Assembly (NCBI GenBank): GCA_030841085.1
Contig: JAVEDP010000018.1
Location: 62,001-126,000, forward strand
Reading direction: 5' to 3'
DNA length: 64,000 nucleotides
DNA from: Pyrinomonadaceae bacterium
GTDB lineage: Bacteria; Acidobacteriota; Blastocatellia; Pyrinomonadales; Pyrinomonadaceae
In this document: positions 2,827 to 56,928 of the stretch, one piece after another
How positions within the stretch are numbered: position 1 is the first letter of the stretch
Layout of the letters: the number at the start of each line of letters is the position of its first letter
Program-made: the position numbers and the translations under genes
The notes under the pieces: generated by a model
What the model saw: only the letters and a program-made list of their open reading frames with translations
The model's database searches: none
What the model was told of the DNA's origin: nothing

Positions 2827-3472
2827 GGTGGGATTCCTTTATTTGTCAGTACCGGCAACCATCGGGTTATGAGAGCCCAAATGGCAATGACTAATCTGGA
2901 AAAGGACTAAGTCTGAACAAAGTATACCAGAAGCGTCTGTTACTGCATAAAGGATCTATCTCGAGGTCGATCTCCCTTCGATTTCCATCAATGCCTACCT
3001 AAATAGCGGCGTGCCGCTGCATACACAGGTTTGAAGGATTAGCCTTTCCGTCGGTTTTCCAACCCCATGTCACTCCGTGCAACCAAGTAGTAAAGCCCGT
3101 GAGGATTATGAGGCTGCTGACAACAACTCTATGCTTCGAACTCTATGTTAAGCAATGACATTTCTCCCGCCGATATACCAACACGGGTTCCTTCTACATA
3201 TGAGAAGGGTAATGTTGTGTGACAAGTGTGTGCCAACAGGTCGCCGTCTCTGAAACTCGTTGCTTTCTAATAAACCTACACCTCACTAATCACACTGAAA
3301 CTGCCACGAGTAAAACCAAAATCATTAATCGGCTTGACTGGCAACACACGGGCATGCCCGCAATGCTGCCACAAGAAAAACTGATAGTTAAGCACTTAGC
3401 TCCTTGAAGATTGCCAACAGAATTCCAATTGTGATCAGGTATTAAAAGAGTGGTGCTTGTAGATATTGAGAT
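2827..3472. other. Gene-poor region upstream of the tRNA fragment
   Basis: Apart from the short coding remnant at 3219-3407, this stretch shows no supported gene. It begins the disturbed region that carries the tRNA fragment and the TIR locus. Confidence 0.4.
3219..3407 (+). pseudogene. Short coding remnant, twin of the one at 8.4 kb
   Basis: A 62-residue open frame ending LDWQHTGMPAMLPQEKLIVK plus a few residues. A diverged copy at 8372-8510 keeps the peptide PAMLPQEKL-VK while changing third codon positions (CTG/TTG, CCA/CCG, CAA/CAG, GTT/GTG). That pattern indicates both descend from a translated sequence. Family unknown. It may be the tail of a lost gene rather than a complete small protein. 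Confidence 0.4.
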
Positions 3473-3526
3473 TGGTGCGTGCGGGAATCGAACTCGCACG
3501 ACCTTACGGACAAAAGGATTTTAAGT
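3473..3526 (-). other. 3' part of a tRNA-Leu(UAA), putative attachment site remnant
   Basis: Read on the minus strand, the segment starts at the anticodon loop (ACTTAAAATCC, anticodon TAA), continues through a long class II variable arm (TTTTGTCCGTAAGG), then a T-arm with GTTCGATT, and ends GCACGCACCA. The acceptor 5' strand, D-arm and 5' half of the anticodon stem are absent; the sequence beyond the loop is unrelated. A break exactly at the anticodon loop is what remains when an integrase uses a tRNA gene as att site. The fragment cannot give a functional tRNA. Confidence 0.65.
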
Positions 3527-3907
3527 GGGCCTATCGGGCTGAAGCGAAGAAAAAAAGGCTAGAGGCATGACGGTTGGTAAAGTAATGACGCTGTGGGGCG
3601 AGTATGCCGACCTACCGCGCAGATTTGAGATAGCCTGTTTGAAAAACACGCGTCGCGTCTGGATCAGGGCTTGCCATGCCGGACCGAAACGTCTACTTTT
3701 CAATGGGGGTTACCGCCACCGATCGATGAGGGCACGGTCGCCGTCGACGATTTTGCAAATCCCAGGCGGCTTCACTCCGCGCGCGATATTGACTGCCCGT
3801 CGAGTCGGAAGCTTCGCATGCACAAGCAGGAACTTTCGTAACCTGATGTCTCATGTAGGGGTGCTCTGTATTCATTCTATCCTTAACGCAGTTGCCAGAA
3901 CGGAATT
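3527..3907. other. Intergenic region between tRNA fragment and membrane protein gene
   Basis: Small overlapping frames (3567-3911 plus; 3521-3703 and 3693-3875 minus) lack ribosome sites and recognisable motifs. I see no supported gene. Confidence 0.35.
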
Positions 3908-4942
3908 ATGACGGCGCGTTTTCACAACAGGGATATTAATGTTCCGCAGGAGGTCGCTGCGCAATTCTCTCAATTGTCCAGGTTACTCGACAATCCAGAA
4001 ATTAGTAAGGAATTTGCAATTCCTGAGGCCCAGGCAAAAAGATCGAAGATTTTTTTTAATACGCTTGGCATATTGTCACTCACTTTTATCATTCTGTTGT
4101 TATTAATTGCGACGTGGCGTTTCTATTTGTACAGAGTCGGCGTCGAACCTCCTCTTTCTCTTTTATGGATTAGTGGCGCGTTGGGTGTGGCTGCTTTTGC
4201 AATGGCGTTGTCATCACATTTTCTATTTGGTTTTCAGGATAAGTGGCTTCACAACCGCTTTACGACGGAAAGACTTAGACAATGGAAGTTCCAGCAGTTA
4301 CTGGATGGAGAATTTCTCACGCTATCTCAAACAGACCAGCCTGAATTTGACAAACAACTTAATGCCCGCTTCGTGAAAGCAAGATTTATCCTGCAGAAGC
4401 CAGGAGCCGTAAATGATTTTCTCAATGCTGAAGACTTCCACCTATTTGTGAAACCCTCTATCTCTTCAGATAGACAATTGGCCAAACAGATCTTTGAAGC
4501 GTATCAACATTTCCGGCTGGATTATCAGGCTGCCTATTTCAGCTTCAAACTAGAGAGATTACGGACCATAGATGTCTGGACAACCAGCATCGCAAAATTT
4601 TCACTCATGCTAGCCGGGCTCCTCGCACTTGGCGAAGTCATTCTCCTACTTGGCGACGCTGGCCGGCGGGAATCCAATCTAAGTTGGCTTGTGGGAGCTT
4701 TAGCTTTATCAGCCGCTTTGATTAGCGCTGCCATCAGGGTCGTTCGTAGCGCGAAAGCCATCTCCGAAGAGACTGAAACTTATGCCAGCAAATGGATTTC
4801 GCTTAAAATCCTGGCAGATAGTTTTCAATCGTTGACAAGCCACAACAAGAAGCTGGAATGCATGATCGAAACAGAAAGAATTTGCGTTGACGAGCTTCGT
4901 GCCTTCATCCGCACCTTTAGCAAGTCCGATTATCTACTGTGA
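3908..4942 (+). CDS. Four-helix membrane protein, SLATT-like in layout
   Basis: 344 residues. Two hydrophobic hairpins are seen, at about 49-69 plus 84-108 and about 231-251 plus 259-278. Each is followed by a charged helical segment (NRFTTERLRQWKFQQLL; ETYASKWISLKILADSF). This duplicated helix-pair plus amphipathic-helix layout resembles SLATT/DUF4231-type membrane effectors of bacterial immune systems, but that rests on topology, not clear sequence identity. It converges on the TIR-receptor gene with only 71 bp between stops, and sits next to the tRNA fragment. Composition is more AT-rich than the housekeeping genes, consistent with acquisition. Confidence 0.6.
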   Translation: MTARFHNRDINVPQEVAAQFSQLSRLLDNPEISKEFAIPEAQAKRSKIFFNTLGILSLTFIILLLLIATWRFYLYRVGVEPPLSLLWISGALGVAAFAMALSSHFLFGFQDKWLHNRFTTERLRQWKFQQLLDGEFLTLSQTDQPEFDKQLNARFVKARFILQKPGAVNDFLNAEDFHLFVKPSISSDRQLAKQIFEAYQHFRLDYQAAYFSFKLERLRTIDVWTTSIAKFSLMLAGLLALGEVILLLGDAGRRESNLSWLVGALALSAALISAAIRVVRSAKAISEETETYASKWISLKILADSFQSLTSHNKKLECMIETERICVDELRAFIRTFSKSDYLL

Positions 4943-5013
4943 GTATTGTAAGTAACTAGAATTACCCCATCCTGAGACTGGTGATGGTCCCAAAAGTTTG
5001 AATGAATAAGTCA

Positions 5014-8004
5014 TTAATTGCCAAGCGGCTTTAATGGGACGGTGACACATTCTCTAATAAACGAAGGTCCATTGAATATTAAGCCGGAAAAGACCTCAAC
5101 TACATCGGCCCCGGCATTTAGAAATTCCAGCACGTGATACGGGTCTGTAATCCCTCCGCAACCTATGATCAGGACATCTTTTCCGACCAACTGTCGCAGG
5201 ATTGAGACGGTATTAATTGCCTTTTCCCTAAGCGGCTCCCCGGAAATCAGGCCCGGAGAGTTCCTTTCTTCGGAGGGCGGCACTAAACTCTTAGAAAAAT
5301 GAGCTGAAGAGCCGGTCGCCACAAACCCGTCACAGGCATCGCGCTGCAGCAGGGGCTCGATGAATGTCTTCAGGGTAGCGACAGACCAGGCTACGCCACT
5401 CGCATCTTCAGGCGTGAGCTTCAGCAAAACGGGTTTTCTAGCTTCGCCACTCAGTTTGTGCGCCTGTTGTTTCAAAGGAAGAAGAATGTCCCCGGCGATT
5501 TGTTCGCTGTCTAATAGATTCAAGGTGTCCGAGATTGCATTCGGGTTGAGGGTGACTACAAAAAAATCCACGTAGTTGATCAATTGTCTAATGAGATACA
5601 ACAACTCGCTGTGAACGTAGGTTGCGCATCTACGCGAATCATCACCCGCGTACTTATCGAGATGGTCCGGGTGAGGTCCGATGTTACAGCCGATTAAAAG
5701 CCCTTTGCGTTCGGTCTCAGGGAAAGCTTTGAGCCTCTTCTTCACTTCCTCAACGCCATCGCTGGCAAACGCTTTACGATGCCAGATAGCTTTCCGGTCA
5801 CGTAAGTGCGTAATCCTGGCCTGGTCTCCCGCCCCCTTCCACGGGTCATCGAAAACGATCCCGATTTCTATGAAGCCGATGCCCAGGCTTTCCAGGCCAA
5901 CCAGGGATTCCGCATTTTTCGAGAAGCCGGCGGCAATGCCGATGCGATTGCGAAAACTGAGACCGCAGTGCTTTTCAACCTCAGCTCTAACTACTTCATC
6001 GCTGCGATAAAAGCGCGCGAAACGGAGAAGATGCAAGGCTGCTCTTTGGGCCAGCTTAGGTGGTATGCGTTGAATTAGGGGCCAGAGCTTCTGATAAAGG
6101 GTCATGCGAAAGACCCAATACCAGATTTGAAAAAAAAAGCCCCGCGCACGGAAAGTCCTGGCGAGTCGCTCCCTAAGCTCTTTAGCCATCGCGTGAGGCA
6201 GTTCCGGCGGTAAGATAATGTCCGCCTCGCCCGCAAACACCATCTCCCGGGCCGTTTCCAACTCAGTCGCGTTCAAGCCGAAGTACAGCGGAATGATTTT
6301 CGTGCAGGCTTGCCCTTTGGCAATGCCTACTTCCTTCTTACAATATTTGGAGTTGAGAAAGTCCTTAGTCACTATTCCGACAAAAGTTCTACACCTATTG
6401 AGTTCTTCCTCGATTTGCGCGTCAGTTTTCTCTCCCGGCCTATAGCTCAGCGAATAGAGATACGTCTCAAACCCCAACCGGCCGAGAATAAGTCGCACTT
6501 TCAGCGCCAAACGCAAATCCTCAGGATTCTGTTCGGTGTAAGAGATAAAGCAGCCTCCCAACTTTCGTTGGTAGTGATATTTCAAGATGAATAGAAAGAG
6601 AAGGGCCGCTAGTAGCAAGGCAAGGATGATTGACGGGATGGAAATTATTCGAAGGCTGTTCCAAAAGCTCAATCGCTCGTCGGTCAAGGGAAGATTTGCT
6701 ATCTGGTCAAGCCCTCTTTTATTCGGGTTGACGTAGGTTAATTCGAACGCCCGATTATCTGGGCGTCTTGCCTCCCCCGTTTCACTATCGAAGCCGGAAA
6801 AATAGCTGATGCCGATCTCGAAAGCACCCTTTCTAAAGTAATCGCGTAGCGCTGAGCGCAGAGCCGAAATTCTTTTCGGCTTAAATAGCTCGGGCTTTTC
6901 CAAATAAACTGTCTTTATGCCCTGAAGAGCTACAACCATAGCGTCGATGGATTTAGCAAGATGGTAGTCATATTCGAGCACATCCTTGGAATAGTCCGGA
7001 TGGTCAAGCTGCCATTCCCGGAACGCGTCGGCACGATTGCGCCGCTCTACAACCGCGAGGTCGCCTGATAAGACAAGCACATACGCTGCCCTCTCGTCGC
7101 TCGTGAAAGCTGAGATATCCAGGCCTGACCCACCAAAAAGATAAAGCCACTGGTTCTTGCGCAATTCGAAACGATTCTTTATTGAGCCTAAGTGAGAATT
7201 GACGTAATCAGATATCGGCAACTCGTCAATATGAAGTCCCAGCAGACCTATCGCATCGACACGCGGCCAACCTCGACGCTTATACTCCTTCTCCAGGTTT
7301 GACAGCAGCCGAACCACATCCTCAGAGCTCAAGTTCCGGTGGTAAGGTATGGCTATCGGTTCATCCGAACCCCCGAGCCCCTTCCAGGCATTCAAGAAAT
7401 CAACCTTCATTCCGTGACCGAACGTGTCCTCATCGCCCTCCTTACCGCTGAAGAACTTGTTGGATGACTCGTAGAATAGCGCGACATATTTTACCGCCCT
7501 CTCTTCTCTGAGTTTCTCCGCTAGAATCTTCATCTGGATGGAATCGGGAGTTGAAATGCGAAAAAGCCAGGGATCGCCTCGTTCCCAGGCGGTGACTGCA
7601 GTGGCGGTACTAATCGGGCAGAGAACGGGAGTCTTATTCGCGGCTGCTACCTGTCCAATTTTGATTGAACAAGAGCTATTCACCGACCCAATAATGAGCG
7701 CCGCATTCTTGTTTATTTGCTCAGCAGCCAAGCGGCTGGCTATTTCTGGATTGCTGTTATCGCTCCCAAAGATTAATGAGACTTCGAGGCCTGGGGGGAG
7801 ATCTACAAAATCTTTCTTACGAGCATTAACAAACTCAATCGCTCGCCGCTGTATAACTCCCGGTCTATATTGACCGACTACCGTGGTGTCGTAAGGACAA
7901 ATAACCCCCACTCTTACTTGGTCTGCGGATTTGATCTCTTGTGCAAGCGTATTCTGGCTTACCAGCAGAACCGCAAATACGATCGTGAGGAATCCCGGTC
8001 TCAT
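5014..8004 (-). CDS. Fusion: periplasmic type-1 binding domain - TM - TIR - dihydroorotate-dehydrogenase-like
   Basis: About 996 residues from ATG at 8004; numbering below is from an in-frame TTG at 8037 (1007 aa). Residues 12-33 are a signal peptide. Residues 40-450 match the amino-acid-receptor type-1 periplasmic binding fold (RVGVICPYDTT, IIGSVNSSCS, VLCPISTATAVTA). Residues 463-487 form one membrane helix. Residues 493-600 are a TIR domain (GGCFISYTEQNPEDL, CKKEVGIAKGQ with Glu569 as candidate NADase residue). Residues 640-1000 resemble class 2 dihydroorotate dehydrogenase: IAAGFSKNAE, VLLKLTPED, ISGEPL, IIGCGGI, FSGLIFNGP. FMN-phosphate motifs are kept, while orotate-contact positions of PyrD look replaced (NPNAIS for SSPNTPG; ATGSS for ATNTT). 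Inferred role: an envelope sensor with cytoplasmic NAD-related output. The frame is unbroken across all joints. Confidence 0.8.
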   Translation of the reverse strand: MRPGFLTIVFAVLLVSQNTLAQEIKSADQVRVGVICPYDTTVVGQYRPGVIQRRAIEFVNARKKDFVDLPPGLEVSLIFGSDNSNPEIASRLAAEQINKNAALIIGSVNSSCSIKIGQVAAANKTPVLCPISTATAVTAWERGDPWLFRISTPDSIQMKILAEKLREERAVKYVALFYESSNKFFSGKEGDEDTFGHGMKVDFLNAWKGLGGSDEPIAIPYHRNLSSEDVVRLLSNLEKEYKRRGWPRVDAIGLLGLHIDELPISDYVNSHLGSIKNRFELRKNQWLYLFGGSGLDISAFTSDERAAYVLVLSGDLAVVERRNRADAFREWQLDHPDYSKDVLEYDYHLAKSIDAMVVALQGIKTVYLEKPELFKPKRISALRSALRDYFRKGAFEIGISYFSGFDSETGEARRPDNRAFELTYVNPNKRGLDQIANLPLTDERLSFWNSLRIISIPSIILALLLAALLFLFILKYHYQRKLGGCFISYTEQNPEDLRLALKVRLILGRLGFETYLYSLSYRPGEKTDAQIEEELNRCRTFVGIVTKDFLNSKYCKKEVGIAKGQACTKIIPLYFGLNATELETAREMVFAGEADIILPPELPHAMAKELRERLARTFRARGFFFQIWYWVFRMTLYQKLWPLIQRIPPKLAQRAALHLLRFARFYRSDEVVRAEVEKHCGLSFRNRIGIAAGFSKNAESLVGLESLGIGFIEIGIVFDDPWKGAGDQARITHLRDRKAIWHRKAFASDGVEEVKKRLKAFPETERKGLLIGCNIGPHPDHLDKYAGDDSRRCATYVHSELLYLIRQLINYVDFFVVTLNPNAISDTLNLLDSEQIAGDILLPLKQQAHKLSGEARKPVLLKLTPEDASGVAWSVATLKTFIEPLLQRDACDGFVATGSSAHFSKSLVPPSEERNSPGLISGEPLREKAINTVSILRQLVGKDVLIIGCGGITDPYHVLEFLNAGADVVEVFSGLIFNGPSFIRECVTVPLKPLGN

Positions 8005-8076
8005 AAAAGGATTGGAGCAAATCCTGGTGCAGCCCAATTGAGTTAGCTTTCCCGCGGTTCAACGCATGCGGTGTGA

Positions 8077-8298
8077 TCACTTCTGCGCCATGCTCTCGAA
8101 GTCTTCGGTTAGGTATGTGTTCGCGCTCAAATCATTTCCCGCTCTGTTGAGCACTCGGATTGTCCATTCTGGCATAACAGTGGTCTGGAAAGGAATAAGC
8201 ATTCGACAATCCAATTTGCAACAGGTGCACGCCTGCCTGATGTTCGGCATCTCCGACCATGGTCTATCTCTGGCACGGTTGTTGTGAGAGATGATCAA
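8077..8298 (-). CDS. Possible small or truncated protein upstream of the TIR receptor
   Basis: Short frame on the same strand as the TIR receptor, with a plausible beta-rich tail (MPEWTIRVLNRAGNDL). This recalls the N-terminal pattern of small carboxypeptidase-regulatory-like proteins of Acidobacteria. It ends 72 bp before the receptor start. It may be the stump of a larger gene. Low confidence. Confidence 0.25.
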   Translation of the reverse strand: MIISHNNRARDRPWSEMPNIRQACTCCKLDCRMLIPFQTTVMPEWTIRVLNRAGNDLSANTYLTEDFESMAQK

Positions 8299-8371
8299 GC
8301 GTACCGAACCTTCAGAATCGTTCCGCAGCCCCGTTTATCTCTTGCTAAATTTAATCGTGATTTATGTGACA

Positions 8372-8510
8372 ACTGGGTGTGCCAATTGTAACTGTTACCA
8401 ATGAACCCCATTGGTTTCTAATAAACTAAACTTCATCAGCTTAACTGGCGGCATAAGTAAACGCCCGCCATGTTGCCGCAGGAAAAATTGCTGGTGAAGG
8501 GCTGACCAAT
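8372..8510 (+). pseudogene. Second copy of the short coding remnant
   Basis: Aligns with 3229-3400: shared TGTGACAA-TG-GTGTGCCAA, TTTCTAATAAAC, and a coding core reading PAMLPQEKLLVK. Here the frame is broken by TAA before the core and TGA after it. It lies on the far side of the TIR-receptor locus from its twin. Confidence 0.4.
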
Positions 8511-55896: not shown

Positions 55897-56928
55897 TTAC
55901 TTCTGGTCCAAAATCATGACCCGCCGTGAATAATCAAACACGACCTTAAACCGGCGTAAGATCGCGTTCCCAACATGCCCGCTAAAGTCGGGACTCGACA
56001 AAACTCCGTTCGTTGCTTGCGAAAACATCGTCATCGGGTTTTCGATCTTTAACTTCCCCAGGAGTATCTCTGTAAGTGTGCCGATTTGCGTTTGTGAATC
56101 TCCGCCGATTCCGCAGATGCTAAAGGGGGTGGTTTGATTAGGCGGGGGCAGCAACTTGTGTTGTTCAACAAAAGGACTAGTGAGGACAAGGGCTACCGCT
56201 GAACCGCTGTCAATCATAAACAGACCGTTAATGGGAGAGCGTCCGGATGCGGTAATTAGTGCTCGCATGTAGATATGCTTTTGCCTTACTTCAAGCGGAA
56301 TCCGCTCGCCCTGACCGCGGTAATGATAACTTTGCGGATCGTATAGGTTCATTGATTTCGCCGCATAATCAATCTCGACAACAAAGTGTCTAAAAAACTC
56401 ATCGCCCAACACACCGTCAAAGGATGGCCGTTCGTCCCCACCGGCAGCCTGCGCACGCCAGGAAACTTTGCCTTGCAAATCGACCTCCATCTTATCCAAA
56501 CATTCTTCTACGTTTTCCAATGAGAGGACAGCGGACTTTTCGCGTGCAATTGTCACTCCGGGAAGAGTGAAAGAAACATTCTCGGTAAAGAAAACATCAG
56601 CCAAGCCTTCTCCCACACCAGTTGTCTGTCCTGCCGGGTTTAGCTTCAGTCCGAGCGCTCGCGCGTTCCTAAGGTTGATGATGTTTCCCGCTCCGGTGTC
56701 TAAAAGAAACCATAGCGGCTTGGCATTATTCAGGCTAACCTGAAGATAAACGTGATTGTTGAAGATTCTAAGTGGGATGTTCAACGCGCTCTTGCCTGAA
56801 GCAAAGCGCACATCAGGCGCGCCGCCTAATGAAACAGCGCAACAACTGATTATTAAGGAGATGGATAAAATAACCCGATGCACGTTTTGGAAGTAGCACC
56901 CAGTTTGGACATTTTCAACTTGCTTCAT
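55897..56928 (-). CDS. Retropepsin-like aspartyl protease, secreted (cassette gene)
   Basis: 343 residues. Signal-like N-terminus (VILSISLIISCCAVSLGGA). Two half-sites: PLWFLLDTGAGNIINLRNAR and NGLFMIDSGSAVALVLTSPF, each with the Asp-(T/S)-Gly motif of a pepsin-like pair, plus DGVLGDEFFRHFVVEIDY. Folding as a single-chain dimer is expected. Outside or periplasmic. The second member of the array is at 62231-63253. Confidence 0.85.
   Translation of the reverse strand: MKQVENVQTGCYFQNVHRVILSISLIISCCAVSLGGAPDVRFASGKSALNIPLRIFNNHVYLQVSLNNAKPLWFLLDTGAGNIINLRNARALGLKLNPAGQTTGVGEGLADVFFTENVSFTLPGVTIAREKSAVLSLENVEECLDKMEVDLQGKVSWRAQAAGGDERPSFDGVLGDEFFRHFVVEIDYAAKSMNLYDPQSYHYRGQGERIPLEVRQKHIYMRALITASGRSPINGLFMIDSGSAVALVLTSPFVEQHKLLPPPNQTTPFSICGIGGDSQTQIGTLTEILLGKLKIENPMTMFSQATNGVLSSPDFSGHVGNAILRRFKVVFDYSRRVMILDQK

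What the first reader, a model, noticed from the sequence alone, without database searches (positions are those of the whole stretch)
5014..5980. PyrD-like domain keeps FMN motifs but seems to have lost the orotate site
Seen: FMN-phosphate motifs IIGCGGI, FSGLIFNGP and ISGEPL and the Lys in VLLKLTPE are present. At positions where E. coli PyrD has SSPNTPG, NRMGFNN and ATNTT, the protein reads NPNAIS, HRKAFAS and ATGSS (alignment from memory). Inference: the barrel binds a flavin but not orotate, so it may sense redox or nucleotide state and gate the TIR domain rather than make pyrimidines.
Basis: partly seen in the sequence, partly recalled or inferred. Interest (0 to 1): 0.75.

Follow-up and report, generated by a model that had tools for sequence, protein, structure and literature searches.

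The report
Pseudo-PyrD flavin domain on TIR receptor
In an uncultured Acidobacteriota genome, a small inserted gene cassette encodes a membrane receptor with a TIR (immune-type) domain joined to a PyrD-like domain that keeps the flavin pocket but has lost the residues that bind and oxidise dihydroorotate, next to a likely membrane-pore gene; it looks like a repurposed metabolic enzyme in a signalling or defence unit, but nothing has been tested at the bench.

Summary
Observation confirmed. The 1007-aa ORF (5014-8037, minus) is signal peptide + type-I periplasmic binding domain + TM + TIR + class-2 PyrD-like domain. Against 51 PyrDs, flavin-site residues are kept (7 of 8 invariant ones; other invariant columns 30 of 77). 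The orotate Asn residues (N111 to H, N172 to T/F, N246 to G) and the Ser base are gone in every alignment; His19 and Arg102 of the quinone site are lost too. An intact PyrD lies elsewhere in the genome. So it is a class-2 PyrD derivative, not a dihydroorotate dehydrogenase.

(2) The only run of nine identical bases in the window lies at the TIR/PyrD junction (6130-6138); one T fewer would end the TIR gene in an ATGA overlap with an ATG matching PyrD Met1, so the 'fusion' may be two coupled genes, slippage or a sequence error. No other TIR-PyrD protein was found. 'Redox gate of TIR' is untested. New variant of a known theme.

The parts
5014..8037 (-). 1007-aa ORF (P0001): signal peptide, type-I PBP, TM, TIR, PyrD-like domain; likely start is ATG at 8004 (residue 12)
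   Evidence: Open frame; Pfam and NCBIfam hits
6673..7932 (-). Extracytoplasmic type-I periplasmic binding domain (approximate limits)
   Evidence: Peripla_BP_6 32.2 bits, cut-off 31.7; full-length alignment with the PBP half of PBP-TM-STAND proteins, shared NSSC motif
6583..6639 (-). Transmembrane segment, residues 467-485
   Evidence: Hydropathy peak 3.0; same place as the TM of PBP-STAND relatives
6271..6549 (-). TIR_2 domain, residues 497-589; E569 in SKYCKKEV at the NADase glutamate position
   Evidence: 41 bits, cut-off 28; Glu aligned with TIRs 3h16 and 9m0n
5014..6105 (-). Class-2 PyrD-like domain, residues 645-1007, with the N-terminal helices
5530..5547 (-). NPNAIS, where PyrD has the Ser base and Asn (SSPNTP)
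6130..6138 (-). T9 run (coding strand) at the TIR/PyrD junction; the only run of nine or more identical bases in the window
   Evidence: nine is the slippage-prone length in many bacterial genomes (PMC1088944)
6102..6105 (-). ATGA: in-frame ATG of M645, which aligns with E. coli PyrD Met1, overlapping a TGA that would end the TIR frame if the T run had eight bases
   Evidence: alignment
3908..4942 (+). 344-aa SLATT/DUF4231-like protein with four TM segments (P0002), convergent with P0001
   Evidence: SLATT_1 36 bits, cut-off 41, two stretches; DUF4231 21.5 bits, cut-off 24.7; hydropathy; no relative in 162 genomes of the class
3338..3392 (+). Left 55-nt direct repeat (copy 3) of the 3' end of a conserved gene
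8445..8499 (+). Right 55-nt direct repeat (copy 4), probably the decayed original 3' end

Best explanation
A small mobile signalling or defence cassette. Its membrane receptor carries an extracytoplasmic solute-binding domain, one TM helix and a cytoplasmic TIR domain with the NADase glutamate. Attached to TIR, as a fusion or as a translationally coupled partner, is a flavin-binding pseudoenzyme derived from class-2 PyrD that no longer oxidises dihydroorotate. Proposed working: a ligand or stress signal, read by the PBP and tuned by the flavin-loaded barrel, activates TIR; TIR consumes NAD+ or makes an ADP-ribose signal; the neighbouring SLATT-like protein is the membrane-pore effector. Shown: domain content, residue states, module boundaries, absence from relatives. 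Inferred: flavin binding, TIR activity, SLATT as effector, and the direction of signalling.
For: Domains over cut-offs for PBP, TIR and DHO_dh; FMN contacts kept 7/8 against 30/77; orotate, base and quinone residues lost; true PyrD elsewhere in the genome; TIR glutamate present; P0001 and the SLATT-like gene are the only sizeable genes between two 55-nt direct repeats and are absent at the orthologous site of G005. Published precedent: TIR-containing conflict systems on several occasions also encode a SLATT protein, predicted to be a nucleotide-responsive pore, and such systems recruit inactive versions of enzymes whose active counterparts are in the same cell (PMC7159879).
Against: Single sequence; no relative with the TIR-PyrD arrangement found, so no conservation evidence for the pocket. 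SLATT assignment is below curated cut-offs. The AlphaFold2 model of PBP-TM-TIR is poor (pLDDT 57). The T9 run leaves fusion against two genes open. The cassette is not called by PADLOC beyond weak ThsB-like TIR hits. The PBP-STAND relatives are not proven defence proteins.
Confidence: 0.4

Rival explanations
1. Two genes, not a fusion: PBP-TM-TIR (about 643 aa) and a separate PyrD-like protein (about 363 aa) overlapping by ATGA. The T9 run is a sequence error, or a real slippage site that yields both separate and fused products. (Compatible with most of the best explanation, but not with a covalent gate.)
For: T9 is the only run of nine or more in 64 kb and lies at the domain junction; with T8 the TIR frame stops in TGA overlapping the ATG that aligns with E. 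coli PyrD Met1. Nine is the slippage-prone length in many bacterial genomes, and replication slippage makes such runs hypermutable (PMC1088944).
Against: As assembled the frame is open through the junction; the neighbouring window genes compared with G005 look intact; no reads were available.
Confidence: 0.45
2. Neofunctionalised flavin oxidoreductase: the barrel still does redox chemistry on another substrate, and TIR reacts to, or is fed by, that reaction.
For: Both lysines of the flavin site, Asn139, Thr245 and the phosphate-site glycines are kept, with new polar residues H753 and K755 in the pocket.
Against: No base candidate and no electron-acceptor site recognisable; no relatives to show conserved pocket residues.
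Confidence: 0.2
3. Integrated decoy: an inactive PyrD copy that an invader factor aimed at pyrimidine synthesis touches, releasing TIR.
For: Active PyrD in the same genome; conflict systems recruit inactive enzyme copies that may act as decoys (PMC7159879); very long branch.
Against: A decoy needs surface likeness, not a flavin pocket, yet the pocket is what is kept; no invader factor known.
Confidence: 0.15
4. Still a dihydroorotate dehydrogenase.
For: Fold and flavin site. Ser to Cys at the base position is tolerated in some class-2 enzymes (PMC8520639).
Against: Base is neither Ser nor Cys, three substrate Asn and the quinone His/Arg are lost; intact PyrD elsewhere.
Confidence: 0.03
5. A decaying pseudogene in which the PyrD part is no longer under selection.
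For: More than half of the invariant PyrD columns are lost; very long branch; mobile region.
Against: A 1007-codon frame without a stop; flavin contacts kept above background (p = 0.019); confident fold.
Confidence: 0.08

Closest known systems
Class-2 (quinone-dependent) dihydroorotate dehydrogenase, PyrD
   Same: Barrel fold with N-terminal helices, FMN contacts, 26-36% identity
   Different: Ser base, substrate Asn and quinone His/Arg lost; joined or coupled to PBP-TM-TIR; below all curated PyrD equivalog cut-offs
PBP-TM-STAND ATPase proteins of other Acidobacteriota families (L073-L078)
   Same: Same PBP class with NSSC motif and the same TM position
   Different: Cytoplasmic part is an NTPase followed by a STAND-kinase gene, not TIR/PyrD
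Conflict systems with TIR, SLATT and inactive enzyme modules (Burroughs, Aravind and colleagues, PMC7159879)
   Same: TIR and SLATT in one unit; recruitment of an inactive copy of a metabolic enzyme; a PBP and an OMP-decarboxylase-like module are listed among their domains
   Different: No GTPase, MoxR-vWA or caspase component here; dihydroorotate dehydrogenase is not mentioned in that paper
Degenerate PyrD with a membrane domain (L024, L026, L027)
   Same: Degenerate class-2 PyrD in the same genus and family
   Different: Both flavin lysines lost; C-terminal multi-TM domain; not grouped with P0001 in the tree

Membership tests
Class-2 dihydroorotate dehydrogenase (PyrD) | FMN-binding TIM barrel with N-terminal helical domain | tested here: met
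   the model's alignment was made of DHODHs, so fold agreement is partly built in
Class-2 dihydroorotate dehydrogenase (PyrD) | Conserved FMN contacts | tested here: met
   7 of 8 invariant contacts kept, Y318 to F; the contact list is from memory of PyrD annotation
Class-2 dihydroorotate dehydrogenase (PyrD) | Serine catalytic base in the (S/C)PN motif | tested here: not met
   No Ser or Cys at the position in any of three alignments
Class-2 dihydroorotate dehydrogenase (PyrD) | Substrate asparagines N111, N172, N177, N246 | tested here: not met
   N111 to H, N172 to T/F, N246 to G; N177 depends on register
Class-2 dihydroorotate dehydrogenase (PyrD) | Quinone-site His19 and Arg102 (E. coli) | tested here: not met
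   Q and H; role of these residues from memory of human H56/R136
Class-2 dihydroorotate dehydrogenase (PyrD) | Score over the curated equivalog cut-off | tested here: not met
   TIGR01036 143 against 200; NF003652 177 against 267
TIR domain NADase | TIR family score over cut-off | tested here: met
   TIR_2 41 bits against 28
TIR domain NADase | Catalytic glutamate at the start of helix C | tested here: met
   E569, aligned with PDB 3h16 and 9m0n; its role is from general knowledge
TIR domain NADase | NAD+ cleavage | not testable with these tools
   Needs an assay
SLATT pore-forming effector | SLATT family score over cut-off | tested here: inconclusive
   36 against 41 bits, two stretches, four TM segments
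Thoeris (ThsA/ThsB) | ThsB TIR with an adjacent ThsA | tested here: not met
   Weak ThsB-like TIR hits only; no ThsA-like gene recognised in the module
Integrative or cis-mobilisable element | Direct repeats of a gene 3' end at both borders, with empty site in a relative | tested here: met
Integrative or cis-mobilisable element | Own or shared site-specific recombinase | tested here: inconclusive
   No recombinase recognised among the ORFs of the modules that were scanned; whole genome not searched for one

The most novel reading that the evidence does not exclude
A TIR receptor whose activity is set by a flavin-loaded pseudo-PyrD domain, so that the redox or ligand state of a repurposed pyrimidine-pathway enzyme controls NAD+-based signalling and a SLATT pore; the T9 run at the junction would set the ratio of fused to free pseudo-PyrD by transcriptional slippage.
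Probability: 0.12. Interest if true: 0.85.

Novelty: new variant of a known kind. Interest (0 to 1): 0.58.

Why it matters
If the flavin-loaded barrel controls TIR, it would link the cofactor state of a metabolic enzyme to NAD+-based immune signalling, and would be a compact testable case of how bacteria turn housekeeping enzymes into sensors. Even if the two parts are separate genes, a PBP-TM-TIR receptor, a pseudo-PyrD and a SLATT-like protein carried together on a 5-kb module is an unreported combination as far as searched, and it points to an insertion hotspot at the 3' end of a conserved gene where more such units can be looked for.

Tried and rejected
Orthologue searches: 162 genomes of the class, 396 of the phylum with PBP-TM-TIR and with TIR-PyrD at E 1e-31, 85k-species contigs by short patterns (low sensitivity), plasmids and phages by tblastn, viral contigs: no protein with TIR and PyrD together. 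Two long-frame hits (G103, G146) proved to be ordinary PyrD in accidental or extended frames. A local frameshift hiding an intact SSPN motif was considered: reading the two other frames around 5530-5566 by eye shows none, and flavin motifs on both sides are in the same frame. Grouping with the membrane-domain degenerate PyrD was not supported by the tree, though both branches are long. A full-length alignment for folding misplaced the PBP rows, so only the PyrD-like half gave a usable model; the PBP-TM-TIR model is poor and was not searched. A TIR-based viral scan had no conserved stretch. Paper searches found no TIR-PyrD report; only open-licence papers were searched. Promoter and terminator scans were at chance level.

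Full report
What is there. The ORF at window 5014-8037 (minus, 1007 aa, likely start ATG at 8004) reads signal peptide, type-I periplasmic binding domain, one TM helix, TIR, then a class-2 PyrD-like domain.

Checking the finding. I aligned the domain with 47 PyrDs, mostly from the same bacterial family plus E. coli, and then with 51 including haloarchaeal, Priestia and Tsukamurella enzymes, under three alignment modes. E. coli K66 and K217, N139, T245, G268, G297 and S319 are kept; Y318 is Phe. N111 is His, N246 is Gly, T247 is Ser, N172 is Thr or Phe, and the Ser base is replaced by Thr, Pro or a gap depending on register, never by Ser or Cys. Class-2 enzymes use Ser at this place and a few natural ones use Cys (PMC8520639). 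H19 and R102, which I take from memory to be quinone-site residues, are Gln and His.

How strong is the contrast. Of 85 columns invariant in PyrD, P0001 keeps 37 to 40. Flavin contacts are kept 7 of 8 against 30 of 77 elsewhere (p = 0.019), and 7 of 8 against 2 of 9 for substrate contacts (p = 0.015). Substrate contacts taken alone are not lost faster than the background (p = 0.29 to 0.49). The sets are small and chosen from memory, so this is modest support for a maintained flavin pocket, while the loss of the dihydroorotate site is direct from the sequence.

Fold. AlphaFold2 on the domain with 13 viral DHODH-like sequences gave pLDDT 79 and pTM 0.83; the best solved structures are human and Plasmodium DHODH, Z about 40 over about 340 residues. 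The N-terminal helices of class-2 enzymes are predicted, with low confidence. The model of the PBP-TM-TIR half is poor.

The junction. The only run of nine identical bases in the window is T9 (coding strand) at 6130-6138, between TIR and PyrD. Removing one T ends the TIR frame after residue 644 in a TGA that overlaps the ATG of M645 as ATGA, and M645 aligns with E. coli PyrD Met1. This looks like a former or actual pair of coupled genes. Whether the genome really has nine T, and whether transcription slips there, cannot be told without reads. Runs of nine A or T are the slippage-prone length in many bacteria (PMC1088944).

The neighbour and the module. The convergent gene at 3908-4942 is SLATT-like with four TM segments, below curated cut-offs, and has no relative in the class. 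In the nearest relative tested, G005, the genes left and right of this region are adjacent; here about 14 kb is inserted. The 3' end of the conserved 158-aa gene at the border recurs four times as a 55-nt direct repeat, starting at contig positions 56365, 59913, 65338 and 70445, and so splits the insert into three modules. The last module, window 3393-8444, holds the SLATT-like gene and P0001 as its only sizeable genes. Another genome, G100, is broken at the same 55-nt core, so this is a recombination hotspot. No recombinase was recognised among the module ORFs. The shared module is the best evidence that the two genes work together; that they do is an inference.

Relatives. No other protein with TIR and PyrD was found (and plasmid/phage searches). 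The PBP part is related to PBP-TM-STAND proteins in other Acidobacteriota families. Sensitivity beyond the phylum is low. On a tree the PyrD-like domain sits outside 52 PyrDs on a branch of 6.7 changes per column, so its exact origin is not resolved.

How it probably works. PBP input, TIR output with its glutamate E569 in place, SLATT-like pore as effector, and the pseudo-PyrD as a flavin-bearing regulator or partner. A published survey of conflict systems reports SLATT genes together with TIR effectors, and recruitment of inactive enzyme copies whose active forms are in the same cell (PMC7159879). None has been tested.

Noticed in passing
L024 1242-3128 (+), L026 2906-4825 (-), L027 1605-3548 (-): A 628-647 aa protein in the same genus and family: degenerate PyrD-like N-terminal part (both flavin lysines lost, phosphate glycines kept) fused to a multi-TM domain that occurs alone in other genomes of the class.
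   Followed up: partly
L105 238-1230 (NZ_CP045613.1, Bacteroides xylanisolvens conjugative plasmid): Annotated DHODH lacking the usual motifs (TINWGSIAPD for NISSPNTPG, ACGPT for ATNTT), beside an IS1595 transposase.
   Followed up: no
L111, L117, L120, L122, L132 (and probably the similar L116-L129): Class-2 DHODH-like genes on viral contigs with Cys at the base position (NISCPNT) and CTNLA for ATNTT.
   Followed up: no
L073 572-2917, L075 5568-9852, L074, L077, L078: Two-gene units: PBP-TM-ATPase next to a STAND-NTPase plus Ser/Thr kinase gene; a receptor class that shares the PBP of P0001.
   Followed up: partly
G000:C41 55982-70499 (window -6018 to 8499); L161, L162: Insertion hotspot at the 3' end of a conserved 158-aa gene (its C-terminal motif is present in 133 of 162 genomes of the class): three tandem modules here, the same core split by about 141 kb in G100.
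   Followed up: partly
L081 1432-2445 (-): Own-genome protein that joins an RmlC-like epimerase region to a TIR domain, next to a thymidylate synthase-like gene; named by eye from the sequence.
   Followed up: no
window 4050-4057: A T8 run inside the SLATT-like gene, the second longest homopolymer in the window.
   Followed up: no
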